The position numbers and the translations under genes are program-made. This document shows positions 6,790 through 20,556 of a DNA stretch of 64,000 bases, in pieces (the first letter of the stretch is position 1; each line of letters opens with the position of its first letter). The stretch spans positions 1 through 64,000 of the forward strand of contig JARKQJ010000152.1 of the NCBI GenBank assembly GCA_029973955.1, read 5' to 3'. This DNA is from Paludibaculum sp. (lineage in GTDB: Bacteria > Acidobacteriota > Terriglobia > Bryobacterales > Bryobacteraceae). The notes under the pieces are model-generated. The model did not search any database. It saw only the letters and a program-made list of their open reading frames with translations, and had not been told where the DNA came from.

Positions 6790-7122
6790 ATGGCTACTAA
6801 GAAGACAACGACGAAGAAAGCGGCGCGAAAGACGGCGAAGAAGGTCGCCGGCAAAGAGAGCGCGCCGAAAATGGCGGCCCAGCCGGGGGCGGAGGAGCAA
6901 CCGGCGAAGAAGCCCGTAGCGCGCCAGTTCAGCGAGCGGAAGATGCGGGCGATGTTGAACATGCTGTTGAACCAGTACGCGGACCAGGTGAAGGACGGGG
7001 GCGTGAAGCTGACGGCCAGCGAAGGGTTCCGGCTGATGCAGTTGCAGGAAACGATGGGGCTGATCAAACCGACGGGAGTGAAAGTCGAGTGGGTGGAGCC
7101 CAAAGAAGAAAGCAAGGAGTAG
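6790..7122 (+). CDS. Lys/Ala-rich small protein, candidate small terminase subunit
   Basis: The 110-residue protein begins MATKKTTTKKAARKTAKKVA, a histone-H1-like basic tail of about 40 residues, followed by a helical segment (about residues 45-100) that I do not recognise. It sits 4 nt upstream of the large terminase gene, the usual place of the small terminase subunit that selects DNA for packaging. ATG 6790 is preferred over an in-frame GTG at 6763 because GGGGGAAG lies about 12 nt before it and the basic tail starts cleanly there. A DNA-binding role is inferred from charge and position only; a nucleoid-type protein is the alternative. Confidence 0.55.
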   Translation: MATKKTTTKKAARKTAKKVAGKESAPKMAAQPGAEEQPAKKPVARQFSERKMRAMLNMLLNQYADQVKDGGVKLTASEGFRLMQLQETMGLIKPTGVKVEWVEPKEESKE

Positions 7123-7126
7123 AGCG

Positions 7127-8410
7127 ATGAAAGTTACCCGGAAAATCCCGTACCAGCCACTGCCTTCGCAGGCGAAGTTTCACGAGTCGAGCGCGAGGTT
7201 CAAGGGATTTTCCGGGCCGATCGGCTCCGGCAAGAGCGCGGCGATGTGCCAGGAGGCGATCAAGCTGGCGTACCTGAATGCGGGGCGGATGGGGCTGATT
7301 GGGGCGCCGACGTTTCCGATGCTGCGGGACGCGACGCAGGCGGCGATTTTGGAGGTGCTGGCGGCGAGCGAAATTCCGTACGACCTGAACAAGGCGGAGA
7401 ACATGCTGACGCTGACGGACACGCAGTCGAAGATCCTGTTCCGGTCGTTGGACGAGTACGAGCGGCTGAGAGGCACGAACCTGGCGTGGTTTGGTGTGGA
7501 TGAATTGACGTACGCCAGCGAAGAGGCGTGGACGCGGCTGGAAGGCCGGTTGCGGGATCCGAAGGCGTCGCGGTTGTGCGGTTTCGGCGTATGGACTCCG
7601 AAGGGGTACGACTGGGTCTACGAACGCTTCATCCAGAACCCGGTGGAAGGGTATGAGTGCATTCAGGCGCGGCCGTATGAGAACCGGCACCTGCTGGATA
7701 AAGTGCCGGACTTTTACTCGCGGCTGGAGAAGAGCTACGACTCGGCGTTTTTCGCGCAGGAGGTTTTGGGCGAGTATCTGAACCCGCGGCAGGGGCTGGT
7801 GTACCACGCGTTCGAGCGGAAGGTGAACGTGGGGGAGACGGCGCTGGACGAGACGAGGGAGCTGCTATGGTCGTTGGATTTCAACGTGAATCCGATGTCG
7901 AGCGTAGTGGCGCAGCGGGATGGGGAGTGCGTGAAGGTACTGGACGAGATCGTGCTGAACCGGGCGAGCACGCGGGACGCGTGTGAGGAGTTTGACCGGC
8001 GGTATCCGCGGCGGGAGCACGGGCTGGTGATCTATGCGGACGCCAGCGCGTCGCACATGCAGACGTCGGGGACGACGGACCGGGAGATTATCGAGCGGTT
8101 CTTCGCCGAACTGGGCGAGCGGCCGGCCTACCGGATTCCGAAGAAGAATCCGGCGGTGCGGGACCGGGTGGGGTTAGTGAACGCCAAGCTGCGGTCGGCC
8201 GGGGGCGGCGTGAGCCTGGTGGTGGACGCGCGGTGCAAGGAGTTGATTGCGGACTTCGAGCGGGTGCAGTGGGTGGAGAATTCGACGGAGATTGACAAGG
8301 ATCGGGATCCGAGGCGGACGCACCTGAGCGACGCGCTGGGCTACCTGCTCTGGCAGGAGTTTCAGAGGAGGCCGGAGATCGGCGAGAGAGACCAGAGGCT
8401 TTTTTGGTAA
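7127..8410 (+). CDS. terL: Phage terminase large subunit (ATPase-nuclease)
   Basis: The 427-residue motor protein would translocate DNA into the procapsid and cut it. The ATPase half has Walker A GPIGSGKS (residues 30-37), Walker B LAWFGVDE (119-126) and a TPKG coupling motif near 157-160. The RNase H-like nuclease half keeps three candidate metal-binding aspartates: Asp251 in LDFN, Asp305 in YADAS and Asp402 in HLSDALGY. The length is normal and there are no lesions, which argues against simple decay. It overlaps nothing and lies within a tightly spaced plus-strand operon. Confidence 0.93.
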   Translation: MKVTRKIPYQPLPSQAKFHESSARFKGFSGPIGSGKSAAMCQEAIKLAYLNAGRMGLIGAPTFPMLRDATQAAILEVLAASEIPYDLNKAENMLTLTDTQSKILFRSLDEYERLRGTNLAWFGVDELTYASEEAWTRLEGRLRDPKASRLCGFGVWTPKGYDWVYERFIQNPVEGYECIQARPYENRHLLDKVPDFYSRLEKSYDSAFFAQEVLGEYLNPRQGLVYHAFERKVNVGETALDETRELLWSLDFNVNPMSSVVAQRDGECVKVLDEIVLNRASTRDACEEFDRRYPRREHGLVIYADASASHMQTSGTTDREIIERFFAELGERPAYRIPKKNPAVRDRVGLVNAKLRSAGGGVSLVVDARCKELIADFERVQWVENSTEIDKDRDPRRTHLSDALGYLLWQEFQRRPEIGERDQRLFW

Positions 8411-8428
8411 GGGAGCGGAACGACAGTG

Positions 8429-9805
8429 ATGGACATCAACCGGGAACATCCCGAATATACGGCATGGAAGACGGTCTGGCCGCGGTACCGCGACCTGTAC
8501 GTCGGAGGCGAGCAGTTCACGGCGAACGCGGAGCGGTATCTGATTCCGCGGCAGAAGGAGCCGGCGGACGTGTACCGCGAGCGAGTGAGCCGGGCGTTCT
8601 ACGAGAACTACATCGGCTCGATCATCGACTGGTATGCGGCGACGCTGTTCCGGCGGGAGCCGATTCTGACGTTCGAGGGGAAGGACGCCATCGCGCGGAA
8701 GTACTTCAACGAACTGTCGGAGGACTGCGACCGGCGCGGCTCGACGCTGAGCGACTTTTTCCGGCGGCTGGTGGTGGAGACTCTGGTGGCAGGGCGGAGC
8801 TACGTTGCGATCGACTTCCCGCGCTCAGAGAAGACGCCGGGGAGCCGGGCGGAGGAAGAGGCGCTGGGCATCTCGCGCGGCTATCTGTGCGAGTATCCGG
8901 CCGAGAGCGTGATCAACTGGCAGCGCGATGAGAAGGGCCAGTTCGAGTGGGTGGTGCTGCGCGGCGAGCGTCTGGTGGAAGACGAGAGCCGGGGCGGGCT
9001 GAAGGTGGTGCGGCAGTGGATCCGGTACGACCGGCAGGGCTTCCAGTTGTGGAGGCAGGAGGGCCGGCAGGATTCGGGCGCGGCGCCGGAGCTGGTGGGC
9101 GAAGGGCTGCACGGGTTGTCGAAGATCGGCAAGGTGCCGGTGTTCGAGTTCTCGATGGGCGAGGGGATGTGGCTGATGAACAAGGCCTCGTCGCTGCAGT
9201 TGGAGCACTTCAACAAGAGCAACGGGCTGGCGTGGGCGTTGACGATGGGGCTGTTCTCGATGCCGGTGATTTACTCCGACAGCGAGTTCAAGCAACTGGT
9301 GGGCGACAGCTACTACGTGAAGCTTGGCAAGGACGACCACTTCGGCTGGACCGAGCCGGAAGGGCACGTCTTCGAGATCGCGCTGCGGAACATCGACCGG
9401 TTGAAGGACGAGATCTACCGGGTGTGCTACGCGATGAACCAGGCGGGCGGAACACTGTCGAAGAACTCGGCGCAGACGGGCTGGAGCAAGCAGCGGGACT
9501 ACCTGATCACGCAGGAAGTGCTGCGGGGCTTCGGGGACCGGGTGAAGGACACGCTGAAGGCGCTGTTGCGGACGCTGGCGCAGGCGAGAGAAGACGAGCT
9601 CAGCATCGACGTGGCGGGGCTGGATGAGTTCGACATCGGCGAGTTCACGAGCGATCTGGAAGATGCCGAGCGGCTGCTGAAGCTGGGGATCGAGTCGAAG
9701 ACATTGAAGGCGCAGGTGCAGAAGAAGGTGGCGCTGAAGTATCTGTGCGACGCGAGCCAGGAAGTGAAAGACCGGATCGCGCAGGAGATCGACGCCGGGC
9801 TGTGA
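8429..9805 (+). CDS. Phage portal protein (DUF4055-like)
   Basis: The 458-residue protein starts MDINREHPEYTAW, like phage portal/DUF4055 proteins, and contains the region in which such proteins form the dodecameric DNA gate at one capsid vertex. The order terminase-portal-scaffold-coat supports the call. The ATG at 8429 is preferred over the overlapping GTG at 8426; GGGAGCGGAA precedes it. The C-terminal third is helical (about residues 350-458), consistent with the portal clip and crown. It is intact and of usual length. Confidence 0.85.
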   Translation: MDINREHPEYTAWKTVWPRYRDLYVGGEQFTANAERYLIPRQKEPADVYRERVSRAFYENYIGSIIDWYAATLFRREPILTFEGKDAIARKYFNELSEDCDRRGSTLSDFFRRLVVETLVAGRSYVAIDFPRSEKTPGSRAEEEALGISRGYLCEYPAESVINWQRDEKGQFEWVVLRGERLVEDESRGGLKVVRQWIRYDRQGFQLWRQEGRQDSGAAPELVGEGLHGLSKIGKVPVFEFSMGEGMWLMNKASSLQLEHFNKSNGLAWALTMGLFSMPVIYSDSEFKQLVGDSYYVKLGKDDHFGWTEPEGHVFEIALRNIDRLKDEIYRVCYAMNQAGGTLSKNSAQTGWSKQRDYLITQEVLRGFGDRVKDTLKALLRTLAQAREDELSIDVAGLDEFDIGEFTSDLEDAERLLKLGIESKTLKAQVQKKVALKYLCDASQEVKDRIAQEIDAGL

Positions 9806-9836
9806 GGCCCGGGCGGCGGGAGAGGAAAGGAGCAAT

Positions 9837-10424
9837 ATGGAGCAGACGCAGAACGAAGAACGGCGTGGGTCCGAAGGGACGGCCGGGGACGGAATGAAGG
9901 GCCTGATCCGTTCGGTGGTGGACGAGTACGTGTCGTCGGAGCGGACGAAGACCGAGCCGGCATACAAGACGGAGCTGGTGGAGGAGCGGAAGCGCCGAGA
10001 GCAGTTGGAGCGGCGAGTGAACGAGTTGGTGGAAGAGAACAAGCGCAGCCGGCAGGCGGCGGAAGAGGCGGACCGGCATGCGCAGATCCGCTCGGAGCTG
10101 CAGCGTCTGGGGGTCTCGAAGGTCGATTTGGCCTTCAAGATCGTGAAGGACGAGGTGGTGCGGACGGCCGACGGAGCGCTGACGGCGGTGACGACGGAGG
10201 GGGAGAAGGGCCTGAAGGAGTTTCTGTCGGGCTTTGTGAAAGAGAACCCCGAGTTTTTGCCGGCGAGAATTGCGGGCGGCAGCGGAGCGGTGAGTCCCGT
10301 GAAGGGGCCGGCCGGACACGGAATTGAGCTTGAGCGGATCCAACCCGGGATGAGCCGGGAGGAGTTGCAGAAGGTCCGCGAGCAGATCTCCCAGGTGATG
10401 TTGCAAACCCTGGGAGGCGAGTAG
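9837..10424 (+). CDS. Capsid scaffolding protein
   Basis: The 195-residue, highly charged protein has a strong coiled coil (about residues 45-85, with EERKRREQLERRVNEL) and no hydrophobic core domain. A helix-loop segment follows (about 90-150), then a Gly/Pro linker and a short C-terminal helix (MSREELQKVREQISQV), a common place for coat binding. Position between portal and P22-type coat genes matches internal scaffolds that template procapsid assembly and are then released. No prohead protease gene is present, as in P22-like systems. The function is inferred from position and structure, not from a recognised family. Confidence 0.75.
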   Translation: MEQTQNEERRGSEGTAGDGMKGLIRSVVDEYVSSERTKTEPAYKTELVEERKRREQLERRVNELVEENKRSRQAAEEADRHAQIRSELQRLGVSKVDLAFKIVKDEVVRTADGALTAVTTEGEKGLKEFLSGFVKENPEFLPARIAGGSGAVSPVKGPAGHGIELERIQPGMSREELQKVREQISQVMLQTLGGE

Positions 10425-10448
10425 AGGGGCCGCGAGGGCCCGCTGGTT

Positions 10449-10489
10449 GGAAAGAAGAAGAAGAAAGAGAAGAGAGAGGAACAAGAGAA
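10449..10489 (+). promoter_or_regulatory. Purine-only leader before the major capsid gene
   Basis: A 33-nt run of only A and G (10449-10481), then CAAGAGAAA, leads directly into the capsid ATG at 10490. It includes GAGAGAGGAA as Shine-Dalgarno. Such an unstructured purine leader would favour high translation of the most abundant particle protein. It is unusual in this window, where most ribosome sites are short. Confidence 0.5.
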
Positions 10490-11401
10490 ATGTCAGCAAT
10501 CACTTCATCGAATCTGGCGAACGCGATTGTGAAGCTGGTGGCGGTGGACGCCCTGCCCGCTTTGATGGGGAACCTGGTGATGGGCAACCTGGTGAACCGC
10601 GACTTCGAGCCGACGCTGGCGCAGGCCGGCGACACAGTGAACGTGCCGATTCCGCCGACGATGGTGGCGAACAACATCGCCGAAGGCGGGACGGTGCAGA
10701 CGCAGAACCCGAGCCTTTCGAACGCACAGATCGTGCTGAACACGCACGCTGAAGCGACGTTCCAGATTCCGGACGTGACGAAGGTAATCGCGGTTCCGGA
10801 TCTGCTGCGGCTGTACATGCAGCCGGCGATGATCGCTCTGGCCGAGAAGGTGGAGAGCGACCTGATGGGCCTGTACGGCCAGTTCACGGCGAACACTCCG
10901 CTGGGGACGGGCGGCTCGGCTTTGACGGAAGCGACGGTGGACGCGGCGGAGACGGCGCTGTTCGAAGCGAAGGTTCCGGCCTCGGAGCAGAAGTACCTGG
11001 TGGTGGACAGCTCGTCGTACTCGCAACTGCGGCAGATTCCGCGCTTCAGCGAGTATCAGACGGCGGGCGACGCCGGGCTGAAGACGCTGGTGGACGGCAG
11101 CATTGGACGGATCAAGGACTTCTACGTCTTCCGTTCGCAGTTCGTGAAGAAGACCGGCACTACGCCGGTGACCACGAACAACATCGCGTTTGCGAAGAAC
11201 GCGCTGGGCCTGGCGATCCGCCGGCTGCCGAAGCCCCTGCCGGGGACGGGCGGCATCGTGGAGTACGCCGAGGTGGGCAACTTCGGCATGCGCGTGCTGA
11301 TGAGCTATCAGCCGAACACGCTGGCGCAGCAGTTCACGGTGGACATTCTGTACGGCGTGGGCGTTCTGCGGAACCAGCACGGCGTGCAGGTGCGCAGCTA
11401 G
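10490..11401 (+). CDS. Major capsid protein, P22 coat (HK97-fold) family
   Basis: The 303-residue protein has the layout of P22-type coat proteins: an N-terminal region with LVNRDFEPTLAQAGDTVNVP, a spine region DLLRLYMQPAMIALAEKVE, and a long C-terminal beta-rich part ending in IRRLPKPLPGTGGIVEYAE. It would assemble with the portal and scaffold into the procapsid. No cleavage site or protease gene is seen, consistent with the P22 group. It is shorter than P22 gp5 (430 residues), so large insertion domains are probably absent. Codon use matches the neighbouring genes. Confidence 0.88.
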   Translation: MSAITSSNLANAIVKLVAVDALPALMGNLVMGNLVNRDFEPTLAQAGDTVNVPIPPTMVANNIAEGGTVQTQNPSLSNAQIVLNTHAEATFQIPDVTKVIAVPDLLRLYMQPAMIALAEKVESDLMGLYGQFTANTPLGTGGSALTEATVDAAETALFEAKVPASEQKYLVVDSSSYSQLRQIPRFSEYQTAGDAGLKTLVDGSIGRIKDFYVFRSQFVKKTGTTPVTTNNIAFAKNALGLAIRRLPKPLPGTGGIVEYAEVGNFGMRVLMSYQPNTLAQQFTVDILYGVGVLRNQHGVQVRS

Positions 11402-11426
11402 CCGAACGGCGAGCGGGTGCAGAAGG

Positions 11427-11462
11427 AGGGCGGCTCAACCAGGGCCGCCCTGCGTGTTTTTG
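11427..11462 (+). terminator. Rho-independent terminator after the capsid gene
   Basis: AGGGCGGC pairs perfectly with GCCGCCCT across a 9-nt loop, followed by GCGTGTTTTT. It lies 25 nt after the capsid stop and 26 nt before the next gene. Partial read-through here would give more capsid than tail transcript, a common phage arrangement. Confidence 0.75.
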
Positions 11463-11487
11463 AGCAGAACGAAAGGAGCAAGCGGGC

Positions 11488-11808
11488 ATGAAGCTGCATG
11501 AGTACTACGACAAGTTGAAGCAGAAGGAAGCGGAGATCTCCGGCAAGGACATCTACGTGACGAGCCTGGCGACGGGGGACGGCGGGAAGGCGGGCGTGGT
11601 GACGCAGGTGCCGAAGCGCGTGGGCTGCCAGTTGATAGTGGAAGGCAAAGCGCGGCTGGCGAGCGAGGACGAGGTACTGGAGTATCTCGAGGAGCAGGAG
11701 CAGCGGCGGGCGGAGATCGAGAGCCAGGTATGCGCGCAGCGGCTGCAGGTGCAGGTGGTGTCGGGCGGGCGGTTCACGGCGCGCGAGCCGAAGAGCAGCC
11801 GGGAATAG
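11488..11808 (+). CDS. Small cassette protein, possible head-completion or decoration protein
   Basis: The 106-residue product (MKLHEYYDKLKQKEAEISG...) is charged, with a central beta-like stretch (about residues 20-60) and a helical Glu-rich segment (about 65-80). I do not recognise its family. It follows the capsid terminator and is separated by 12 nt from the next gene, AGGAGG being the ribosome site between them. Position suggests a capsid-associated or connector protein, which is inference only. Confidence 0.55.
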   Translation: MKLHEYYDKLKQKEAEISGKDIYVTSLATGDGGKAGVVTQVPKRVGCQLIVEGKARLASEDEVLEYLEEQEQRRAEIESQVCAQRLQVQVVSGGRFTAREPKSSRE

Positions 11809-11820: not shown

Positions 11821-12558
11821 ATGGCACTGCTGGTAGACGGCGACTTGAATCGAGTGGAAGAGCTGAAGGACTGGGACACGACGGTCCTGGACGTGGCGAA
11901 CAGCGAGGGGATCGACCTGCCGGCGAAGTTGAGGCTGGCGTGGAAAGAGATCGAGGAAGAGGTGCAAGGGTTCCTGCTGTGGCAGGAGGCGGGAGAACTG
12001 GGCCAGGCGCTGGTGGACCAGGCGATGCGCAAGTGGCACGCGTTGATGACGCTGGAAGCCGTCTACCGGGATGCCTATTTCAGCCAGTTGAACGACCGGT
12101 ACGAGAAGAGGTGGAAGCACTACGCGGAGCTGGCGGCGGCGCAGGAGCGGCGGTATTTCCAACTGGGGGTGGCGACGGTGTCGAAGCCGGTGCGGCGGCC
12201 GGAGAGGGTGGTGGTGACGTTCGGCGAAGGCACAGCGCCGGCGGCGACGTACTGGGTGCGGGCGACGCACCTGGATGAAGCGGGCCGGGAGAGCGCGGCG
12301 AGCGAGGTGCAGATGGTGAGCAGTCCTCTGCCGCACTCGATGACGGTGGGGCTGGCGTATGCGCCGGCGGGGGTGACGCACTGGAACGTGTACGTGGGTC
12401 TGGAGAGCGGCAGCATGTCTTTGCAGAACGCGGCGCCGATGGTGGCGGGCGGGCTGTGGGTGCTGCCGGAGAGCGGCGTGCGGAGCGGGCGGCCGCCGGG
12501 CGACGGGCAAGCGGCGGACGGGCGGATCGAGCGACTGCCGCAGATGCGGAGGGGCTAG
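11821..12558 (+). CDS. Head-tail connector-like protein with C-terminal FN3-like module
   Basis: The 245-residue protein has a helical N-terminal half (about residues 1-110) in the position normally held by gp6/adaptor-type connectors. A beta-rich C-terminal half (about 125-225) contains APAATYWVRATHLDEAGRES and THWNVYVG, resembling fibronectin-III-like modules found on phage surfaces. A similar module appears in the tail-tip protein of this cassette. The FN3-like region may be displayed on the particle surface. The stop is 2 nt from the next ATG. Family assignment of the helical half is tentative. Confidence 0.6.
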   Translation: MALLVDGDLNRVEELKDWDTTVLDVANSEGIDLPAKLRLAWKEIEEEVQGFLLWQEAGELGQALVDQAMRKWHALMTLEAVYRDAYFSQLNDRYEKRWKHYAELAAAQERRYFQLGVATVSKPVRRPERVVVTFGEGTAPAATYWVRATHLDEAGRESAASEVQMVSSPLPHSMTVGLAYAPAGVTHWNVYVGLESGSMSLQNAAPMVAGGLWVLPESGVRSGRPPGDGQAADGRIERLPQMRRG

Positions 12559-12560: not shown

Positions 12561-13058
12561 ATGACGTTCACGACGCGAGAGGTGGTGGAGGCGGTCCAGG
12601 AACTGCTGGAGAGCGACGGCGGATTGCCGGCGAGCCTGGAGGCGCTGAAGCGCGAATACATTCGCGAGGAACGGCTGCCGGAGTACGCGCCGGTGGTGGT
12701 GTCAAACATTCCGGCGGAGATGCAGGAGCGGGCGTGGGGATTGAAGTATCCGGTGGTGCAGGTGTACGCGGAGCGGATCGAGAGCCGGCCGGCGGAACGG
12801 CTGCGGCGGTTTTCGGGGCGAGTGAGAGTGGTGGCTGAGATCCGGGTGTCGGGCGACCGTCTGAACGGATTGACGGAGCGGCTGCACTACTACGTGGACG
12901 CGGTGCGGGACGTGCTGGAGAAGAACGTGGGGTGCGTGCGCGAGGGGCTGTACCTGCTGCAGGAGTATGACGTGCAACTGGAGCCGGTGAAGAAGGGCGG
13001 ACAGAACTTTCTGCAGACGGCGCGGATCGGCTGCGTGGTGATGGTGAACCGAGGATAG
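12561..13058 (+). CDS. Tail terminator/completion-like protein
   Basis: The 165-residue product begins MTFTTREVVEAVQELLES. It has an alpha/beta composition with a central strand-rich segment (RRFSGRVRVVAEIRVSGD) and C-terminal QTARIGCVVMVNRG, reminiscent of phage minor tail proteins that cap the tail tube. The ATG lies 2 nt after the previous stop, with GGAGGGG as ribosome site; longer in-frame extensions would overlap the neighbour without a start signal. It precedes the tail-tube gene directly, matching lambda U/Z-type order. The family is not certain. Confidence 0.6.
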   Translation: MTFTTREVVEAVQELLESDGGLPASLEALKREYIREERLPEYAPVVVSNIPAEMQERAWGLKYPVVQVYAERIESRPAERLRRFSGRVRVVAEIRVSGDRLNGLTERLHYYVDAVRDVLEKNVGCVREGLYLLQEYDVQLEPVKKGGQNFLQTARIGCVVMVNRG

Positions 13059-13072: not shown

Positions 13073-14239
13073 ATGGCTTGCTACATATCGTCGAGAAACA
13101 ACCGCTACTACGCGGCAGTGGAGGAGAGCTACGGCACAGCGGCGCCGGTGACGGCGGCGAACCGCTTCAACGCGGTGACGCTGGAGGCGCAGTTCGAGTA
13201 TGAACGGCCGCGGCGGAGAGACAAGACCGGGACGCGGACGGATTTGGGGTTCACGGGCGAGTTGAAGCGGAAGACGCGCTTCGCGCTGCAGACCTACCTG
13301 TACAGCAGAGAGAGCGGCGACCAGGCGCCGCGGTATGGAGCGCTGGTGCAGAGCGCGCTGGGCGGCGCGCCGCGCGTGGTGGGCGGAGGCAAGGCGGTGG
13401 CGTCAGTGAACGGATTGACGCTGACGTTCGGCTCGGCTCACGGATTGACGCTGGGCGATGCGATCACGGTGGGCGGCGAACTGCGCTTCGTGGCGGCGGC
13501 GCCGGACAGCAACAGCGTGACGCTGAGCGCGCCGTTGAGCGGAGCGGCCGGGCAGGTGACGGGCGGCACGGTGGTGTATTCGCCGGCGACGGGATTGAAG
13601 GGCGTAACGGTGTACGACTACTGGGATCCGGAGACGGCGGTGCAGAGGCTGCTGCGGGGTTCCGCGGTGAACACGATGGAGCTGAAGTTGAACGCGGACT
13701 TCCACGAGCTGACGTTCGAAGGGCAGGCGGCGGACCTGGTGGACAACAAGAGCTTCGTGGAGGGCAGCGGCGGGCTGAGCACATTCCCGGCGGAGCCGGA
13801 GCGGGAGATGGTGAACGACTGGCCGGTGCCGGGGCACCTGGGGCAGGCGTGGATTGGGACGGGTCCGGATCAGTTGCACACACTGGTGGATGCGAAGGTG
13901 CGGATCAAGAACAACATCGATTTCCGGAGCAAGGATTTCGGCGCATTGGCACCGCGGTGCATTGTGGCCGGGGACCGCGAGGTGACGGTGGAGCTGGAGC
14001 TGTACAGCCAGGACCGGGCGGTGTTTGACGAGATCTACCAGGCGGCGCGGCAGCAGAGTCCGATCGGGTTGACGCTGCAGATGGGCGACGCGGAGGGATC
14101 GATGTGCGGGGTGTACATCCCGGCGCTGATTCCTGCGGTGCCGGAGTTGCTGGATGGAGAGGAGCGGCTGCGGTGGCGGCTGCGGGGCTGCAAGGCGATC
14201 GGCACGGGGGAGGATGAAATCCATGTGGCGTTTGGGTAA
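13073..14239 (+). CDS. Major tail tube protein with inserted surface domain
   Basis: The 388-residue protein lies just upstream of the frameshifted chaperone gene, the standard place for a siphovirus tail tube. An N-terminal part (RNNRYYAAVEESYGTAA) is typical of tube proteins. A Gly/Ser/Thr-rich beta insertion (about residues 100-175) may be an Ig-like decoration. The C-terminal half (about 195-388) resumes the tube-like pattern, with VRIKNNIDFRSKDFG and VELELYSQDRAVFDEIY. It would polymerise around the tape measure. It overlaps the chaperone start by 17 nt. Confidence 0.75.
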   Translation: MACYISSRNNRYYAAVEESYGTAAPVTAANRFNAVTLEAQFEYERPRRRDKTGTRTDLGFTGELKRKTRFALQTYLYSRESGDQAPRYGALVQSALGGAPRVVGGGKAVASVNGLTLTFGSAHGLTLGDAITVGGELRFVAAAPDSNSVTLSAPLSGAAGQVTGGTVVYSPATGLKGVTVYDYWDPETAVQRLLRGSAVNTMELKLNADFHELTFEGQAADLVDNKSFVEGSGGLSTFPAEPEREMVNDWPVPGHLGQAWIGTGPDQLHTLVDAKVRIKNNIDFRSKDFGALAPRCIVAGDREVTVELELYSQDRAVFDEIYQAARQQSPIGLTLQMGDAEGSMCGVYIPALIPAVPELLDGEERLRWRLRGCKAIGTGEDEIHVAFG

Positions 14240-14624
14240 ATGGCGGCGGCGCGGGGAGGTGGAGTACGCGAGCGCGGAGTGGCACGAGTCCGATGTATTG
14301 AAAGGCGTGCGATACAAGCTGGCGCGGATTTCGCTGGCGCGGCGAGTGGAGATCACTAGCCGCGTGCGGGCGCTGGTGGCGGAGGCTGAGTATCACGTGT
14401 CGAGCGACGGGATGCTGGACGCGATCGCAGCGGCGGAGGTCGAGGCGAAAGTGCATCAGGCGTACCTACAATGCGGGCTGCTGGAGCTGCGGGGCCTGCG
14501 GGTGGACGGCGAGACGTGCGGCGTGGCGGAGCTGGTGGAGCGGGGTCCGGAGGGGCTGTGCCGCGAGATAGCGGGGCGGATACGGGCGCTGTGCGTGGTG
14601 AGTCAGGAAGAGCGAAAAAACTAG
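14223..14624 (+). CDS. Tail assembly chaperone, short form (lambda gpG-like)
   Basis: The 133-residue protein starts at ATG 14223, eight nt after GGGGAGGA, and ends at a TAG placed directly after a slippery heptamer. It has a helical core (about residues 35-110). In lambda-like phages this product, with its frameshift-extended form, holds the tape measure while the tail tube assembles, and is not in the final particle. Position between tail tube and tape measure and the frameshift signal support the role; sequence similarity alone would not. Confidence 0.8.
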   Translation: MWRLGKWRRRGEVEYASAEWHESDVLKGVRYKLARISLARRVEITSRVRALVAEAEYHVSSDGMLDAIAAAEVEAKVHQAYLQCGLLELRGLRVDGETCGVAELVERGPEGLCREIAGRIRALCVVSQEERKN

Positions 14625-14674
14625 TTCTCGCACTCCAGTTCCATTTGGGAGGCGGAGCCGCCTGGCGGTGCGAG
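14615..14674 (+). promoter_or_regulatory. Programmed -1 ribosomal frameshift site
   Basis: Heptamer A AAA AAC at 14615-14621 is in the exact zero-frame register needed for tandem -1 slippage and is followed immediately by the TAG stop. After a 5-nt spacer (14622-14626), CTCGCAC (14627-14633) pairs perfectly with GTGCGAG (14668-14674), enclosing a second 5-bp hairpin AGGCG/CGCCT (14650-14663, tetraloop). The -1 frame stays open to 14947. This is the canonical arrangement of lambda G/GT-type sites. Confidence 0.92.
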
Positions 14675-14947
14675 GAATGCAGGAAGATGCGGCTGGAAGA
14701 GCGGCGCGGGTGCGGTTGGTTGAAACCGCGGAAAGCGGGCGGACGGATTGTGTGGGCCCGCGGCGGAGCGGCGACGACAGAGTGCCCGCGCAGCGCGATT
14801 ACGGCGCAGAGCGCGGCGTGGCTGGAGTTGTTCGCCGCCTGGAAATGGACCGGCCTGGCCGGGGAGAGCGAGTTGACGGCGCGGGACGTGGACGCGCTGG
14901 CGATTCTGAACCGCGAATGGGAGAAGGCGAAGCATGACCAACGATGA
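14621..14947 (+). CDS. Frameshift extension of the tail chaperone (gpT-like domain)
   Basis: Read after the -1 shift, this segment adds 108 residues to the 133-residue short form, giving a 241-residue GT-type protein. It has no plausible start of its own near the junction. The extension carries four cysteines, in WRCEECRK, RRGCGW and TTECPRS, which could bind a metal, and ends with a helix (VDALAILNREWEKAKH). In lambda the T domain recruits tail tube subunits to the tape measure. Its last bases overlap the start of the next gene by 14 nt. Confidence 0.8.
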   Translation, partial: LVLALQFHLGGGAAWRCEECRKMRLEERRGCGWLKPRKAGGRIVWARGGAATTECPRSAITAQSAAWLELFAAWKWTGLAGESELTARDVDALAILNREWEKAKHDQR

Positions 14948-15542
14948 ACGGGACGTGGCGAGCGTATTGAGAGAGGCAGTAAAAGCGGCGGCGGGGTATC
15001 CGGCGTCGCGAGTGGAGACGGAAGGCGTGGCGCTGGATGGGCCGGCGCCGGAGTCCGCGCGGGCTGTGAAGCAGAGCGCCGGCACGGAGACGGCGAAGGC
15101 TGCGCAGGGGCGGACGGCGGAGAGCGCGCTGGGGGTGGGGTCGACGAGCACGGTGCTGGATTCGATCGCACCGCTGGTGACGCAGGTGACGGGCGGGAGC
15201 ACTGTGTCGAAGGTGGTGTCGTGGATCAACCCGCTGGCGGGCGCGCTGCTGGGCTTGTTCGGCGGAGGCCGGAGCGAGCCGGAGGTGGAACTGCCGAAGG
15301 CGATGCGGCCGGCGAGCATCCACTACGAAGCAGGCATTCGCGGCGCGGGCGGAGAGATGGTGCAGGTGGACCGCGACGAGCAGGGCCAGCTACGGAGCGC
15401 GGAGGCGCCGCCGAGCGTGGTGGTGCACGTGGCGGCGATGGATAGCGTGTCGTTCCTGGACAGGACGCCGGAGATCGCGGAAGCGGTGAAGCGGGCGCTG
15501 CTGGAGAGCGACGGGTTGGGCCGGTTAATGAACCCCGATTAG
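14934..15542 (+). CDS. Very short tape-measure-like protein
   Basis: The 202-residue protein follows the chaperones, where the tape measure belongs. It has a low-complexity Ala/Glu N-terminus, a hydrophobic segment (VVSWINPLAGALLGLF, about residues 97-115) as found in tape measures, and a C-terminus (VVVHVAAMDSVSFLDRTPEI) that resembles the end of tape-measure proteins in GTA-like and lambdoid tails. Typical siphovirus tape measures are 600-1500 residues; this one would specify a very short tail. It may be an internally deleted tape measure. No other tape-measure candidate exists in the cassette. Confidence 0.65.
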   Translation: MTNDERDVASVLREAVKAAAGYPASRVETEGVALDGPAPESARAVKQSAGTETAKAAQGRTAESALGVGSTSTVLDSIAPLVTQVTGGSTVSKVVSWINPLAGALLGLFGGGRSEPEVELPKAMRPASIHYEAGIRGAGGEMVQVDRDEQGQLRSAEAPPSVVVHVAAMDSVSFLDRTPEIAEAVKRALLESDGLGRLMNPD

Positions 15543-15552
15543 GAGAGAAGCG

Positions 15553-15909
15553 ATGTTGGAATTCCCCAAGCTGAAGACGGGCGCGGCGGCGCAGTATGGC
15601 GTGCGGCGAGGCGTGGCGGGCGAAGTGCGCGTGCTGCCGTTTCTGGATGGCACGGAGCAGCGGTACGCCTCGAAGCGCTGGAAGAGGAAGTGGCGCATCC
15701 GCCTGGACCAGTTGGACGAAGGGGAGGCGGGAGCGGTGGAAGAGTTCGTCAGGCGGCACTTCACGACGCTGGAGCCGTTCGCATTCACGGATCCGCAGAC
15801 GGGGACGGTTTACGCGCAGTGCGTAGTGGAAGGCGATGGGCAGGAGTGGGCAGCCTGGGCGGCGGGCGACAGCCGCATGAGCATCACGGTTTCGGAAACG
15901 GAGGAATGA
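15553..15909 (+). CDS. Distal tail protein A (paralogue of the next gene)
   Basis: The 118-residue protein begins MLEFPKLKTGAAAQYG and is nearly all beta-strand. Its first 90 residues align by eye with the first 90 residues of the next gene product (MNYPILKSGAVAQYP), including the shared W-x-I-x-L/Y-D and EAGA-x-E patterns. Both look like the DUF2460/distal-tail domain that builds the tail tip ring. AGGAGAGAAG precedes the ATG. The role is inferred from position and from the similarity to distal-tail domains. Confidence 0.65.
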   Translation: MLEFPKLKTGAAAQYGVRRGVAGEVRVLPFLDGTEQRYASKRWKRKWRIRLDQLDEGEAGAVEEFVRRHFTTLEPFAFTDPQTGTVYAQCVVEGDGQEWAAWAAGDSRMSITVSETEE

Positions 15910-15910
15910 G

Positions 15911-16675
15911 ATGAACTACCCGATATTGAAGAGCGGCGCGGTGGCGCAGTATCCGCTGTCGAGAAGGACACGGCATCACATCCTTCAGACCGAGACGCCG
16001 GGCGGCCAGGTGAAACGGATCCACGGCGGGCGGACGGCGGAGGTCGGCTGGACGATTCAGTACGAGGACCTGACCGACGCCGAGGCGGGCGCGCTGGAGC
16101 TGCTGTTTGAGGCCAGCGGCGGCGGGCTGCAGACGTTCCGGTTTGTGGACCCGCTGGCGAATCTGCTGCGGTCGAGCGGAGATTTGAACGCCGAAGTGTG
16201 GAGCCGCGCAGGTGTGACGGCAGCCGCGGTGGAGGGAGAGCCGGGAACGTTCGTGGTGACGAATGGGGCCCAGGCTGAGGCGATGGTGTGGCAGAGCGTG
16301 GGGGCGGTGCCCGGGATGACGGTGTGCTTTTCGTGCGAGGTGGGCGGGTTGCCTGGCGCGGAAGTGAAGTTGCGATGTGCGGGTCAAGAGAGCCTGGTGA
16401 GGCTGACTCCGCAGTGGCAGCGCGTGTGGGTGGCCGGCGTGGCGGCTGGCGAGGATGTTGTGTGCGGTGTGGCGGTGCCGGCGGCAGCGAGTGTGGTGGT
16501 GCGGAGATTGCAGGCTGAGAATCAGATGGCGCCGACCGAGTACAAGAGCGGCGATCCGGATGGCGGCGTGCACCAGGTTCGGTTTGAAGCGGGCGGTTTG
16601 GAGACGGAGATCACCGGCAAGGATCGCAACGCGATGGTGGTGCGCTTGCGCGGCAGACGAGGGAGCTTGGCATGA
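15911..16675 (+). CDS. Distal tail protein B with C-terminal lectin-like module
   Basis: The 254-residue protein combines an N-terminal distal-tail-like domain (about residues 1-90), paralogous to the preceding gene, with a beta-rich domain (about 95-215). The second domain has ELEVWSR-like spacing (LNAEVWSRAGVT) and repeated short strands, resembling galactose-binding/carbohydrate-binding modules. The C-terminus returns to the tail pattern. It starts 1 nt after the previous stop and overlaps the tip gene by 4 nt (ATGA). The added module could contact a cell-surface glycan. Confidence 0.6.
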   Translation: MNYPILKSGAVAQYPLSRRTRHHILQTETPGGQVKRIHGGRTAEVGWTIQYEDLTDAEAGALELLFEASGGGLQTFRFVDPLANLLRSSGDLNAEVWSRAGVTAAAVEGEPGTFVVTNGAQAEAMVWQSVGAVPGMTVCFSCEVGGLPGAEVKLRCAGQESLVRLTPQWQRVWVAGVAAGEDVVCGVAVPAAASVVVRRLQAENQMAPTEYKSGDPDGGVHQVRFEAGGLETEITGKDRNAMVVRLRGRRGSLA

Positions 16676-19600
16676 GCAGCATCCATGAAAAGAAGCGGCT
16701 GGAGGTGCTGGAGACGCCGCTGCTGTTGTTTGAGTGCGCGCTGGCGGACGGAGGCGTGGAACGGTGGTCGACGCACCGGGTGACGGCCGAGGGGCAGGAG
16801 TACGAACCGAGGATTCTGCGGCACAGCGGCTTCGAGATGAAGCTGGCGGGAGAAGAGGCCGTGGATAGCGGGGCGCGGTTCACGGTGACGCTGAGCAACG
16901 TAGACCGGAGAGTTTCGCAACTGGACAGCCAGAACCGCTGGAGCGGCGCGCGGCTGCGGGTGCGGTTCGGATTCTTCCACCTGCAAACGGGAGTGCCGGC
17001 GAGCGAGCTGATTGCCGTGTATGCGGGTGTAGCGAATCCGGTGGAGGAGCTGACAGAGACGGAGGCGCGGCTGAGCTTCACGAACCGGTTGAGCCTGCAG
17101 AGAGTGAGCGTGCCGACGCTGCGGATTCAAGCGCGGTGCCCGTGGCGATTTCCGGTAACGGCGGAAGAGCGCATGGCGGCGTTGGATGCGACCTCAGCGT
17201 GTGGAAAGTGCGGCTATTCGGCGGATGCCGAAGGCGGTGTGGGGAATCTGCTGGAGGGCGCAGCCTACGCCGGCTGCGGGCGGACCCGGGAGGAGTGCCA
17301 GGCCCGGGGGATGTTCTCCGTAGACGCGCGGGGGCAGGAGACGGCGCGGTTTGGCGGGTTCACCTATTTGCCGCCGAGCGTGGAGGTGCGTTCGCATGCG
17401 ACCGGCGAGCGGATGGTGGCGGAGGCGATCGACGGGCGGGCGCGTTCGAATGACGCGGTGCCGCTGGTGTACGGGACGGCTTGGATCAATGCGCCGGTGG
17501 TGTTCGCCAGGAACGACGGGAATCTGACGCACTGCGAGGTGCTGCTGTGCTCGGGGCCGATCGAGGGTGTGCAGAAGGTGATCGCCAATGGTGTGGAGCT
17601 GCCACGCGGGGAGCATGGCAAGGACATGACGGCGACGGGTTGGTACAACGTGCTGAGCCTGGGCGGACGGAACGGCGGATTCAACCTCACATTCACGGAT
17701 GCGGCGGGCAGGCCGGCCGGCGACCCGCATGGGAGCATGGCGTGTCTGGCGGTAGTGCTGCCGAATGCGATTGTGACGCAGGGCAAGCTGCCGAAGGTGG
17801 AGGTGCTGCTGGACGGGCTGAAGCTGCGGCGGTATTCGAATGAAGGCGAGGAGTTGGGGGCGGCGTTTACGCGGAACCCGAGTTGGGTGCTGCTGGATTT
17901 GCTGGAACGCGGCGGGTGGAGCACGGAGGAGATTGACATCGCGAGCTTCGCGGCGGCGGCGTCGTTTTGTGAGGAGTTTGTCGAGATCCGGATGCCAGGC
18001 GGCGAGACGGCGCAGGGGCCGCGGTTTGAAGTGAATGTGGCGTTGACGCAGCGGCGGAGCTTGAGCGAGATCGTGCGCGGCGTGCGGATGGCGGCGGGGC
18101 TGATGGCGACGATCGATGAGCAAGGTCGGGTAACGATCCGGCCGGAGTCCACGCTGGCAGTGCAGGCGGCGGAGAGACCGGCGGGGTCGAACAGCACGGA
18201 GGCTTTGCAGGGGGGCTGGCCGGCGTATGAGTTCGGCGATGGAATGAACGGGAGGAGCGCGATTCTGCGGAGCGAGAGCGGGCGTTCCACGTTCCGGATC
18301 TGGCGGCGGGCGACGAGCGCGACGCCGAACAGGATCAGCGTTGAGTTTCAGGACGCCTTCAACTACTACCAGCAGGACAGCCTGTCGCTGGTGGACTTCG
18401 AGGACGCGGCGGCGCAGGGATGCGAGGTGGCGGTGACGTCGGGGGCAGTGGGGTTGCCGCACGTGGACCAGGCGGCACGGATCGTCAGGCTGCAGTTGGA
18501 GCGCGGAATCGCGGGGAACCGGTTTGTGGAGTTTGAGACGAGCGTACAGGCTCTGGGCCTGCGGCCTGGAGACCTGATCGCGATCTCGCACTCCCGGGAA
18601 GGTTTGGACCGCGCGCTGTTCCGCGTGCTGAAGCTGACACCGGCGTTGAACTTTGAGCGGGTAAAGATTGTGGCGCAGCTCCACAAAGACGAGTGGTACC
18701 TGCGGGCGAGCGGAGATTGGCAGGACAGGTATCGGGAAGCCTTGGAGCGCTCCGGGATTCCGCGGCCACTGGCAGGCCTGATGAAGGACGCCGCGGGCGA
18801 GGAGTTGTTCGCGGTGGAAGAGATCGACACCGGCGGATTGGAGCAGGTGGAACTGGCGGTGAAGTTCGGCAAGCCGGCGGGGATTCCATTACAGGCGGGG
18901 ACGCCGCCGGTGGTGAATCTGCAGGCCGGAATCACGGCGGGCGGCGGGACGCTGGCGGGCGGCGAGGTGCTCTACTACGCAGTGAGCGGAGTGGATGCGC
19001 AGGGCGTGGAGACGGCGCTCTCGTTTGTGGTGCAGGCCGCGCTGCCGGCGGGCGCGCAGTATGCTGTGGCGCTGGAGGGGATTCGATGCGCGACAGGTCA
19101 CGGCAGGATGAGGATCTATCGCGGGAGATCGACGTGGCGGATGAGGCGGATTGCGGAGACGGTAGCGGCGGCGCGATTTGTGGATGCCGGTTTGGAGGCG
19201 AGTCTGGCTGCGCCACCGGATGCGAACTACGACCATGCTCTGTTCCAGTGGCGATTTGAAAAGTTGCCGGAGACGGAGGTGGAGATGGCTGGCGCGAGTT
19301 CGGTGGGCAAGCGCGGGCTGGGTTTGCTGCCGAATGAGTTTGCCGGCTGTCTGGTGCGGATCACGCGAGGGAAGGGTGCGGGGCAGGAGCGGCTGATCGC
19401 CAGCCATTCGGCTGAGGTGCTCGAACTGACCGAGGCATGGCGGGAGGCGCCGGATGCGACGAGCTGGTTCACGATCGCGGAGGGGAGCTGGAAGCCGGCA
19501 GGCATCACATCGAGCGATGGGATTCATATGCTGGTGCCGAACCGGCCGGGCGAAGTGGTGCAGTTGCTGGGCACGGCGGTGAGCGCGGCCGGGGCGGAGA

Positions 19601-20556
19601 GTGTCAACCGGGAGGCGATCGTACACCGGCACCGGATCGAAGGCGATCTGCAGGCGGGCGATGCGGATGTGCCGCCGGAACCGGTATTCGGTGTAACGAC
19701 CATGGGGCAAGGCGCCGTGGAGATCGCCGGCATCGGGTTTGGGACGCTGGACAACACGGTGACGATCCGCAGCGGGACGCTGACGCTGCACTATTGGAAT
19801 GAGCTGCTGAGTCCGAGCCAGGCGGTGCTGGCAGGCGCGACTGACGACACGGCGCAGGCACTGGTGATGAGCGGATTGACGGCGGAGGCCGGCGATCTGC
19901 TGCAGGTGGAAGGCGAACTGGTGCGCGTGTTGGAGGTGAATGGAGGCCAGTATCTGGTGGACCGGGGTTGCCACGGCACGCCGGCGATGGCGCATGGTGC
20001 GGGCGCGATCGTCTACCGAATGAGCCGGCGGACGGCGGTGCTGCCGTTTTCGAAGGGATTCTTTGGGAGCAGCGCCAGCGGGAGCTACTCGCAGTCCGTG
20101 GATCTTCCGAACGCCAGGGTGGCGGCGGCTGAGCTTTTCATGACCAACGACCGGGGCCACGGCCCGACAGGCGCGCTGGCGTTCACAATGACGGCGCAGG
20201 GCGGATTGCGGACCATGAGCGGCGGGCAGTACAGCCTGCAATGGGAAGGCGATCTTGCGGTGACGGGGTCGATCGCTCCGGAGCTGGTAGTGGAGGCGAC
20301 GCGAGTGGTGCTGGATGTCCGGGCCCGGCTTGGAGTTGCCCCGATCATGGAACCGGTGGAGGTGCGGGTGCTGGTGAATGAAAACGTGTACGCCACGCTG
20401 CAGGTTCCTCCGGGGTCCAGGAACTCCGCGGCGTTGAGCGGATTCGGGAAGCCGGCGCTGAAAGAGGGGGATCGAGTTCGCGCCCAGATTGCGAGCGTCG
20501 GGACGAGCGGCGGGAGCTATCCGGGGCGGGACCTGACGGTGACGATGCGGCTGTAG
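16672..20556 (+). CDS. Tail-tip protein: gpL-like Cys-rich domain fused to gpJ-like host-specificity protein
   Basis: The 1294-residue protein begins with a beta domain (residues 1-150, DUF2163/gpL N-terminal-like). A cysteine-rich segment follows, with Cys156 (RCPWRF), Cys177/Cys180 (CGKCGY), Cys202, Cys209 and then RFGGF at 226-230. That pattern matches lambda gpL, whose C-terminal domain binds an iron-sulfur cluster. From about residue 262 it continues as a gpJ/tip-attachment protein (PLVYGTAWINAPVV, LLCSGPIEGVQKV, RNPSWVLLDLLERGGW). A C-terminal 600 residues hold FN3-like and other beta modules, the likely receptor-binding part. In lambda, L and J are separate genes with K and I between them; here no K-type peptidase is present. 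Confidence 0.85.
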   Translation: MSSIHEKKRLEVLETPLLLFECALADGGVERWSTHRVTAEGQEYEPRILRHSGFEMKLAGEEAVDSGARFTVTLSNVDRRVSQLDSQNRWSGARLRVRFGFFHLQTGVPASELIAVYAGVANPVEELTETEARLSFTNRLSLQRVSVPTLRIQARCPWRFPVTAEERMAALDATSACGKCGYSADAEGGVGNLLEGAAYAGCGRTREECQARGMFSVDARGQETARFGGFTYLPPSVEVRSHATGERMVAEAIDGRARSNDAVPLVYGTAWINAPVVFARNDGNLTHCEVLLCSGPIEGVQKVIANGVELPRGEHGKDMTATGWYNVLSLGGRNGGFNLTFTDAAGRPAGDPHGSMACLAVVLPNAIVTQGKLPKVEVLLDGLKLRRYSNEGEELGAAFTRNPSWVLLDLLERGGWSTEEIDIASFAAAASFCEEFVEIRMPGGETAQGPRFEVNVALTQRRSLSEIVRGVRMAAGLMATIDEQGRVTIRPESTLAVQAAERPAGSNSTEALQGGWPAYEFGDGMNGRSAILRSESGRSTFRIWRRATSATPNRISVEFQDAFNYYQQDSLSLVDFEDAAAQGCEVAVTSGAVGLPHVDQAARIVRLQLERGIAGNRFVEFETSVQALGLRPGDLIAISHSREGLDRALFRVLKLTPALNFERVKIVAQLHKDEWYLRASGDWQDRYREALERSGIPRPLAGLMKDAAGEELFAVEEIDTGGLEQVELAVKFGKPAGIPLQAGTPPVVNLQAGITAGGGTLAGGEVLYYAVSGVDAQGVETALSFVVQAALPAGAQYAVALEGIRCATGHGRMRIYRGRSTWRMRRIAETVAAARFVDAGLEASLAAPPDANYDHALFQWRFEKLPETEVEMAGASSVGKRGLGLLPNEFAGCLVRITRGKGAGQERLIASHSAEVLELTEAWREAPDATSWFTIAEGSWKPAGITSSDGIHMLVPNRPGEVVQLLGTAVSAAGAESVNREAIVHRHRIEGDLQAGDADVPPEPVFGVTTMGQGAVEIAGIGFGTLDNTVTIRSGTLTLHYWNELLSPSQAVLAGATDDTAQALVMSGLTAEAGDLLQVEGELVRVLEVNGGQYLVDRGCHGTPAMAHGAGAIVYRMSRRTAVLPFSKGFFGSSASGSYSQSVDLPNARVAAAELFMTNDRGHGPTGALAFTMTAQGGLRTMSGGQYSLQWEGDLAVTGSIAPELVVEATRVVLDVRARLGVAPIMEPVEVRVLVNENVYATLQVPPGSRNSAALSGFGKPALKEGDRVRAQIASVGTSGGSYPGRDLTVTMRL

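What the first reader, a model, noticed from the sequence alone, without database searches (positions are those of the whole stretch)
6790..20556. Candidate domesticated phage particle (gene-transfer-agent-like) with P22-type head and lambda-type tail parts
Seen: about 13.8 kb of intact, tightly packed plus-strand genes from terminase to tail tip, with no integrase, repressor, replication or lysis gene anywhere in the 64 kb, bounded by host-type genes. Known: Rhodobacter GTA is encoded by a structural cluster of similar size, and its lysis and regulation genes lie elsewhere. Inferred: this may be a retained particle that packages host DNA, assembled from a P22-fold coat and scaffold (no protease) and a gpG/T-gpL/gpJ tail. 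A prophage that lost its early region is the main alternative.
Basis: partly seen in the sequence, partly recalled or inferred. Interest (0 to 1): 0.85.

Follow-up and report, generated by a model that had tools for sequence, protein, structure and literature searches.

The report
Domesticated phage particle in soil Acidobacteria
A family of soil bacteria (Bryobacteraceae, Acidobacteria) appears to have tamed a tailed virus long ago and to pass its intact head-and-tail genes down with the chromosome, probably to make particles that move the bacteria's own DNA between cells.

Summary
The 13.8-kb cluster is real, intact and not a stray prophage. Cluster genes are found in 86 of 101 genomes of the same family, with the same order and gene lengths across tens of genera. 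The cluster tree largely follows rpoB (11 of 23 splits shared; shuffles average 0.2). Of 103 dN/dS values, 102 are below 1. TerL catalytic residues are invariant (54 of 54). A -1 frameshift heptamer is kept in 42 of 43 loci. No tyrosine-integrase match lies on the window's contig. As in R. capsulatus GTA, the presumed tape measure is miniature (179-235 aa; 1145 aa in a prophage relative) and the presumed small terminase has no predicted helix-turn-helix. A tail-sheath-like gene sits next to the cluster or elsewhere. Best reading: an independently domesticated, gene-transfer-agent-like particle; none was found described for this phylum in the library searched. Host-DNA packaging is inferred, not shown. 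One genus (4 of 4 genomes) has no TerL match yet keeps capsid and tail genes, so not every member can be a classical gene transfer agent.

The parts
5687..6613 (-). host flank: proline dehydrogenase
   Evidence: PF01619 E 1.8e-35; also upstream in G001, G003, G004, G005, G052
6790..7122 (+). g1, putative small terminase (110 aa): basic disordered N-tail plus two helices and a conserved C-terminal VxW motif, no helix-turn-helix predicted
   Evidence: position before TerL; homologues aligned; AlphaFold2 mean pLDDT 70, helices 49-69 and 76-88 only; no PHROG hit; function inferred
7127..8410 (+). g2, large terminase (427 aa), catalytic residues kept
   Evidence: phrog_2 E 6.6e-42, PF03237; Walker A K, Walker B D and E, three nuclease D invariant in 54 of 54 (motif names recalled)
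8426..9805 (+). g3, portal (459 aa)
   Evidence: phrog_145 E 1.1e-53
9837..10424 (+). g4, scaffold-like (195 aa)
   Evidence: phrog_206 E 1e-4, position between portal and coat
10490..11401 (+). g5, P22-type coat protein (303 aa)
   Evidence: PF11651 E 2.5e-17, phrog_283 E 5.5e-44
11488..11808 (+). g6, conserved small protein of unknown role (106 aa)
   Evidence: found in 48 loci; no family hit
11821..12558 (+). g7, head-tail connector candidate (245 aa)
   Evidence: found in 48 loci; no family hit; role inferred from position
12561..13058 (+). g8, neck or tail-terminator candidate (165 aa)
   Evidence: found in 45 loci; no family hit; role inferred from position
13073..14239 (+). g9, tail tube candidate (388 aa)
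   Evidence: phrog_290 (minor tail protein) E 3.6e-11; tube role inferred from position
14214..14624 (+). g10, gpG-like tail assembly chaperone
   Evidence: position and conserved frameshift at its 3' end; no family hit
14615..14621 (+). -1 slippery heptamer A_AAA_AAC just before the g10 stop
   Evidence: heptamer in 42 of 43 tube-to-g13 intervals; 53 in 587,868 bases of other cluster genes, 3 of them in this phase
14621..14947 (+). g11, gpT-like frameshift extension
   Evidence: reading frame -1 to g10 in all 43 loci listed (in G010, G068, G081 the g10 frame picked is doubtful)
14934..15542 (+). g12, miniature tape measure candidate (202 aa)
   Evidence: 179-235 aa in 39 genomes; profile matches residues 941-1125 of the 1145-aa protein at the same place in a prophage relative, i-Evalue 2e-13 in a two-sequence search
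15553..15909 (+). g13, gpM-like minor tail protein
   Evidence: PF05939 E 2.5e-4, below the curated cut-off; phrog_14 E 4.6e-5
15911..16675 (+). g14, distal tail protein candidate (DUF2460-like)
   Evidence: phrog_1302 E 0.0023, PF09343 E 0.022: weak
16672..20556 (+). g15, gpJ-like tail tip / central fibre (1294 aa)
   Evidence: PF13550 E 4e-10, phrog_31 E 1.1e-18
20621..20697 (+). host flank: tRNA-Val (CAC), no matching att repeat

Best explanation
An ancient tailed prophage was domesticated near the root of the Bryobacteraceae. It lost its integrase and its long tape measure, and has since been inherited mainly with the chromosome as a structural cluster for a small, short-tailed particle. 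The likely working: scaffold and coat build a P22-type procapsid on the portal. TerS, with a basic unstructured tail in place of a sequence-reading domain, brings the catalytically intact TerL to chromosomal DNA without a pac site, and TerL fills the head. A -1 frameshift makes gpG and gpGT, which assemble a very short tail on the mini tape measure, tipped by the gpJ-like protein and a TIM-barrel tail protein encoded next door or at a second locus. Cell lysis would release particles that deliver host DNA to kin. Shown: gene content, synteny, intactness, selection, largely vertical inheritance, catalytic residues, frameshift site, shortness of g12. Inferred: ancestral losses, roles of TerS and g12, particle production, non-specific packaging, lysis, delivery.
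For: TerL in 63 of 101 relatives incl. all 8 other genomes of the genus, mostly one copy; cluster genes in 86 of 101 family genomes. Same order and spacing in loci long enough to show it; lengths of g2-g15 mostly conserved in 36-60 loci per gene. rpoB congruence: 11 of 23 splits shared against 0.19 expected; Mantel rho 0.69, and 0.54 outside the genus. dN/dS below 1 in 102 of 103 cells. TerL active sites 54 of 54. Slippery site 42 of 43. g12 of 179-235 aa against 1145 and 999 aa in two prophage relatives. TerS with no HTH predicted, as reported for RcGTA TerS (PMC6854486, passages). No tyrosine integrase on the contig, no att repeats. Phage records: all 54 coat and 1026 TerL matches below 60% identity; the listed rows reach 28.5% and 33.7%. 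Tail-sheath-like gene elsewhere in 18 of 18 tested cluster genomes without an adjacent copy, and in 0 of 6 tested cluster-less genomes.
Against: No particle, packaged DNA, lysis module or regulator was shown. Genus g81 has no TerL match in 4 of 4 genomes, G057 none beside the cluster, and G038 only scraps, while their capsid and tail genes look intact. 12 of 23 splits differ between the two trees. The coat tree does not separate three prophage coats from the 50 cluster coats, and the TerL separation has support of only 77. The chromosomal site differs among clades and even within the genus. Ten family genomes lack the cluster and five hold remnants or parts. 5 of 21 tested genomes with the adjacent sheath-like gene also have further copies. 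TerS and tape-measure identities are inferred; the 1145-aa protein has no family name.
Confidence: 0.7

Rival explanations
1. Domesticated particle that does not move DNA: an antibacterial or protein-delivery particle whose heads are empty or dispensable.
For: Genus g81 keeps portal, scaffold, coat and tail (coat dN/dS 0.03-0.09) with no TerL match in 4 of 4 genomes, and the other TerL-type hits fetched from those genomes do not match the cluster TerL profile.
Against: In most members TerL is conserved (54 of 54 active sites) with dN/dS 0.09-0.25, which a DNA-free particle would not need; tailocins keep no head genes (recalled).
Confidence: 0.18
2. A still-mobile prophage family specialised on Bryobacteraceae that integrates without an encoded integrase or borrows helpers (satellite-like).
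For: Related prophages live in the same hosts (second loci in G006, G049, G040); the chromosomal site differs between clades.
Against: No tyrosine integrase on the contig or att repeat; one fixed gene set; tree congruence with the host; two related prophages have a much longer protein in the tape-measure place, and prophage TerLs fall outside the cluster's TerL group (support 77 only).
Confidence: 0.07
3. Non-functional prophage remnant kept by chance.
For: A few decayed copies (G157, G302, G422, G038).
Against: Intact frames in tens of genera, purifying selection, conserved catalytic residues and frameshift signal.
Confidence: 0.02

Closest known systems
RcGTA and relatives (Rhodogtaviriformidae), Rhodobacter capsulatus
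   Same: About 14-15 kb structural cluster (size recalled), inherited with the host; TerS that appears to lack the N-terminal DNA-binding domain (PMC6854486, passages); short tape measure of about 113+83+20 residues (PMC7296036, passages); GTAs encoded by dispersed operons (PMC12946183, passages).
   Different: P22-type coat with a scaffold-like gene (RcGTA head type recalled as different); no peptidoglycan peptidase among Pfam hits of the 15 genes; gpG/gpT frameshift and TIM-barrel sheath-like protein; another phylum; no experimental proof of gene transfer.
Bartonella and Brachyspira GTAs (Barto- and Brachygtaviriformidae; PMC9662315, passages)
   Same: Independently exapted tailed-phage derivatives, transmitted vertically with the host genome.
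   Different: Different hosts; no gene-by-gene comparison was made here.
Related prophages in the same host family (second loci: G006 C1:850-886 kb, G049 C156, G040 C144)
   Same: Homologous TerL and coat (and portal); in G006 and G049 the tail order is similar.
   Different: In G006 and G049 a 1145- or 999-aa protein in the tape-measure place; larger spacing; extra genes that read like methyltransferases and a beta clamp (names from reading the sequence).
Acidobacterial prophages of Eichorst et al. 2018 (PMC5900883, passages)
   Same: One predicted prophage each in Bryobacter aggregatus and Ca. Solibacter usitatus was reported and counted as active.
   Different: The passages read do not propose a domesticated particle; whether those predictions are this cluster was not tested.

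Membership tests
Gene transfer agent (functional sense) | Particles package host DNA at random, not mainly their own genes | not testable with these tools
   No particle data.
Gene transfer agent (functional sense) | Inherited vertically with the host, no autonomous mobility | tested here: met
   rpoB congruence, though 12 of 23 splits differ; no tyrosine integrase on the contig, no att repeats, synteny
Gene transfer agent (functional sense) | Intact head, packaging and tail genes under purifying selection | tested here: met
   exceptions: genus g81, G057 and G038 have no intact TerL beside the cluster
Gene transfer agent (functional sense) | Small terminase without sequence-specific DNA-binding domain | tested here: inconclusive
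   No HTH in one predicted model, basic disordered tail; TerS identity rests on position; DNA binding not testable here
Gene transfer agent (functional sense) | Host-encoded lysis and regulation at other loci | not tested
   No genome-wide lysis or regulator search was made; a tail gene at a second locus was found
Rhodogtaviriformidae (RcGTA family) | Host in the order Rhodobacterales (PMC9662315, passage) | tested here: not met
   Record titles of coat matches are Bryobacteraceae, Bryobacterales, Solibacter and other Acidobacteria
Rhodogtaviriformidae (RcGTA family) | TerL and major capsid protein homologous to RcGTA | not tested
   No direct alignment with RcGTA proteins; the coat here is P22-type (PF11651)
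Active prophage | Integrase and att sites | tested here: not met
   (tyrosine type genome-wide, Pfam on window ORFs)
Active prophage | Replication and lysis genes | tested here: inconclusive
   None among Pfam matches of the 15 cluster genes and 36 other window ORFs, 18 of which match nothing
Active prophage | Patchy distribution, host-independent phylogeny | tested here: not met
   86 of 101 family genomes, congruence
Tailocin | Tail genes without capsid, portal and terminase (recalled) | tested here: not met

The most novel reading that the evidence does not exclude
A tamed tailed-phage particle is a shared organ of a whole family of soil Acidobacteria. In most genera it is a gene transfer agent that loads chromosomal DNA through a TerS with a histone-H1-like basic tail. 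In at least one genus (g81) it has lost the terminase and become a DNA-free headed particle with another job, still under selection.
Probability: 0.3. Interest if true: 0.9.

Novelty: new variant of a known kind. Interest (0 to 1): 0.8.

Why it matters
Well-founded gene transfer agents are few: the 2022 classification evaluated three independently exapted groups (PMC9662315, abstract passage). A further independent lineage, present in most genomes of a soil family, would show that domestication of phage particles repeats with the same solutions (mini tape measure, TerS without DNA reader, tail parts elsewhere), and would give a route for gene exchange in Acidobacteria. It also means that some 'proviruses' in viral databases may be host organs: IMG/VR holds 481 stretches encoding coat relatives, and 8 of the 26 fetched loci over 12 kb begin exactly at the terminase start codon. 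The genus without TerL makes the question 'what is such a particle for without DNA?' testable.

Tried and rejected
Att repeats of tRNA-Val: none of 12 bases or more in the window. Recent defective prophage: rejected. Empty-site test: in 8 of 10 cluster-less genomes searched an ilvB-like gene was found, but no cluster gene or ABC transporter of the expected kind lay in the 1.5 to 6 kb fetched next to it, so no ancestral empty site was shown. TerL in trans for genus g81: 12 stretches around other phrog_2 matches were fetched from the four g81 genomes; no ORF there matches the cluster TerL profile at E 1. A replacement by an unrelated TerL is not excluded. AlphaFold model of g12: too poor to use (mean pLDDT 54.6). 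The tail-sheath-like and gpJ-like proteins have no solved relative by sequence at E 0.1; the coat has two weak ones (8zdh, 9jwb). The 1145-aa protein of the G006 prophage has no Pfam or PHROG name, so 'tape measure' rests on position, length and the g12 profile match, which has a noted composition bias; the 999-aa protein of G049 does not match that profile significantly. First rpoB comparison used wrong reading frames for three genomes and is replaced. One dN/dS cell above 1 (g4, G009-G044, 1.66 with dN 1.88) is probably a wrongly chosen ORF; two cells of 105 could not be computed. TerS: for 8 of the 54 loci no ORF was picked (one has no upstream sequence), and a few picks (such as G011, G023) lack the motif. 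Literature: searches for a gene transfer agent with Acidobacteria or Acidobacteriota returned 28 (20 listed) and 5 papers, and one that added domesticated prophage returned 0; a wider GTA search returned 5. Passages of PMC5900883, PMC12142844 and PMC8522061 name no acidobacterial GTA; the other papers listed by those Acidobacteria searches were seen as listings only. Most subscription papers and bioRxiv are not held.
Full report
WHAT IS THERE. The window's contig (170,905 bases; genome of 6.5 Mb in 282 contigs) carries 15 plus-strand genes at 6790-20556 with no interrupted frame. Pfam and PHROGs recognise TerL (phrog_2, 6.6e-42), portal (phrog_145, 1.1e-53), P22-type coat (PF11651, 2.5e-17), a weak scaffold, a tail protein (phrog_290) and a gpJ-like tip (phrog_31; PF13550). 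The flanks are proline dehydrogenase, tRNA-Val and a LytTR response regulator. No tRNA-derived repeat of 12 bases or more exists in the window, and none of the genome's four PF00589 integrase matches is on this contig. Outside the cluster, 18 of 36 scanned window ORFs match Pfam, all host-type; the other 18 match nothing. Composition is like the surroundings.

HOW WIDESPREAD. In 101 relatives including its own genome, TerL matched in 63, including all 8 other genomes of the genus. In a class-wide draw of 399 genomes, 101 rows belong to the window's family f1 (85 with and, as listed, 16 without a match). Counting together: 79 have a TerL match of at least 50% identity over most of its length, 7 more have the coat although that TerL was not found (G057, G132, G138, G227, G268, G365, G416; the G365 and G416 contigs are only 3.0 and 3.6 kb), 5 have remnants or parts (G157, G302, G422, G032, G260), and 10 have none. 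So 86 of 101 have cluster genes; synteny was checked only in the fetched loci. Outside f1, strong full-length matches are few: G068, G081, G089 (53-54%) and G063 (58%); G210 has a 100-residue match of 53% at a contig end. Named contigs with the coat are mostly titled Bryobacteraceae, Bryobacterales, Solibacter, Sulfopaludibacter or Acidobacteria (80 of 113 matches listed); a few carry other names, such as Arcobacter, which I take for wrong labels. That f1 is Bryobacteraceae is inferred from these titles.

SAME GENES, SAME ORDER. In the 60 fetched loci the order TerL to gpJ-like and the spacing are the same wherever the contig is long enough, except for second loci that are prophage relatives (L074-L078, L080) and for insertions in L072 and L073. 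TerS is too divergent to be found by tblastn in most loci, and g12 or g10 in a few. Lengths hardly vary: coat mostly 303 in 53 loci (287-304), gpJ-like 1185-1323 in 36, g12 179-235 in 39 (a few outliers, some from the prophage loci). Flanks change by clade: proline dehydrogenase upstream in G001, G003, G004, G005 and G052 but not in G002, G006, G007; an ilvB-like gene upstream in G015, G027, G041, G046, G051, G055, with ilvN and ilvC-like genes in five of them; an ABC transporter downstream in G033, G036, G037, G041, G049, G059, and one that looks alike in two g81 loci. Pfam confirms ilvN and a Wzt-type ABC transporter for G041; the ilvB and ilvC names are from reading the sequence. G041 has both flanks, so these clades probably share one old site.

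INHERITANCE AND SELECTION. For 26 genomes a concatenate of 10 cluster proteins (3848 columns) was compared with rpoB. Eleven of 23 splits are shared (mean 0.19, maximum 3 in 2000 label shuffles); Mantel Spearman is 0.69 for all, 0.63 within f1, 0.54 without the genus (p 0.001-0.002). Twelve splits differ, so some transfer or tree error remains. NG86 dN/dS for 15 genes in 7 pairs gave 103 values, 102 below 1: coat 0.007-0.21, TerL 0.09-0.25, portal 0.05-0.27, g12 0.16-0.77, gpJ-like 0.13-0.38; the one value above 1 looks like a wrong ORF. TerL keeps the Walker A lysine, the Walker B DE and three nuclease aspartates in 54 of 54. The 54 cluster TerLs lie on one side of the tree from 7 prophage TerLs, with support of only 77; the coat tree does not separate 3 prophage coats.

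MECHANISTIC SIGNS. (a) Frameshift: 'A AAA AAC' stands at or within two codons of the g10 stop in 39 of 43 loci, g11 is in the -1 frame in all 43, and the heptamer is in 42 of 43 tube-to-g13 intervals (G025 lacks it), against 53 in 588 kb of other cluster genes (3 in phase). (b) Tape measure: g12 is 202 aa; the prophage at G006's second locus has a 1145-aa protein at that place and G049's second locus one of 999 aa; the g12 profile matches the C-terminal part of the former (i-Evalue 2e-13 in a two-sequence search, composition bias noted) but not significantly the latter. RcGTA's tape measure is of similar size (113-residue helix, 83 residues, 20-residue helix; PMC7296036 passages). (c) TerS: short proteins, mostly with a K/R-rich variable N-tail and a conserved 'RLLQLxKELE...VxW' end (no ORF picked in 8 of 54 loci). 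The window's model has two helices and no helix-turn-helix (mean pLDDT 70.3). Pfam shows only a sub-threshold histone H1-like HC2 match (E 0.015). RcGTA TerS likewise appears to lack the N-terminal DNA-binding domain (PMC6854486 passages).

A SECOND LOCUS. In 20 of 36 loci with a complete gpJ-like gene, a further gene follows on the same strand, in 18 of them within 57 bases; in G022 it encodes 918 aa with PF23845, non-contractile tail sheath TIM barrel, E 2.5e-15. The window's genus lacks it there. Of the 16 genomes without it, 14 were tested and all 14 have a homologue elsewhere, as do 4 of 4 g81 genomes: 18 of 18. Of 21 tested genomes with the adjacent gene, 15 have only that one, 5 have further copies or long pieces (G015, G028, G031, G035, G040) and G009 has fragments. 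Of the 10 cluster-less genomes 6 were tested and none has it. The window genome's best copy is at G000:C186:44275-47265, outside the window; in three loci read in full (L311, L314, L317) the neighbours look like host genes. Some other copies may belong to prophages.

LOSS AND A PUZZLE. G302 and G157 share a deletion that joins TerL codon ~50 to codon ~146 of the sheath-like gene. Genus g81 has no TerL match in 4 of 4 genomes but keeps portal to gpJ-like; in the two loci whose upstream region was read (G138, G268) no TerS or TerL is seen, and in G132 the contig starts inside the portal. Coat dN/dS is 0.03-0.09 and gpJ-like 0.08-0.15 (portal dS saturated). Other TerL-type hits fetched from those genomes are not of this family. 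So either a different terminase serves in trans or the particle works without DNA there.

VIRUS DATABASES. IMG/VR has 481 stretches encoding coat relatives; the best 80 lie on contigs of at most 17.4 kb. Of 26 fetched loci longer than 12 kb, 8 begin exactly at the TerL start codon, at a contig end (L081, L085, L086, L090, L094, L095, L096, L106), as expected if prophage callers cut the cluster out of host contigs. In the phage records all 54 coat matches and 1026 TerL matches are below 60% identity; the 15 rows listed for each reach 28.5% and 33.7%.

VERDICT. Domesticated, vertically inherited phage particle: about 0.9. Gene-transfer-agent function as described: about 0.7. No acidobacterial gene transfer agent was found in the library searched.

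Noticed in passing
L271 (G084:C2:1376001-1396000) 8562-17348; L272-L274: Another family of the class (f7) has a different conserved phage cluster (TerL 509 aa, an 885-aa protein of portal size, major head protein 418 aa; these three are 63-91% identical in three other loci). Its TerL is in 47 of 81 f7 genomes, 9 of 13 genera: a possible second, independent domestication.
   Followed up: partly
L323, L325, L330, L331 (genus g81): Capsid and tail genes kept under purifying selection in a genus with no TerL match.
   Followed up: partly
L312 (G000:C186:96001-116000) 8867-12715: A second, longer sheath-like homologue (1282 aa) on the same contig as the stand-alone copy, with large neighbouring ORFs of unknown kind; perhaps another phage-derived element.
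   Followed up: no
L072 (G068) between g12 and g13: About 3.7 kb inserted, with ORFs that read like LamG- and beta-helix-type tail-spike proteins (names from reading the sequence).
   Followed up: no
IMG/VR loci L081, L085, L086, L090, L094-L096, L106: Catalogued as viral, but cut exactly at the cluster boundary; viral counts for soil may include host-owned particles.
   Followed up: partly
L165 (DYJN01000047.1): A contig titled Arcobacter sp. has the length (28,418) of G052's cluster contig and carries the coat; the title looks like a wrong label.
   Followed up: no
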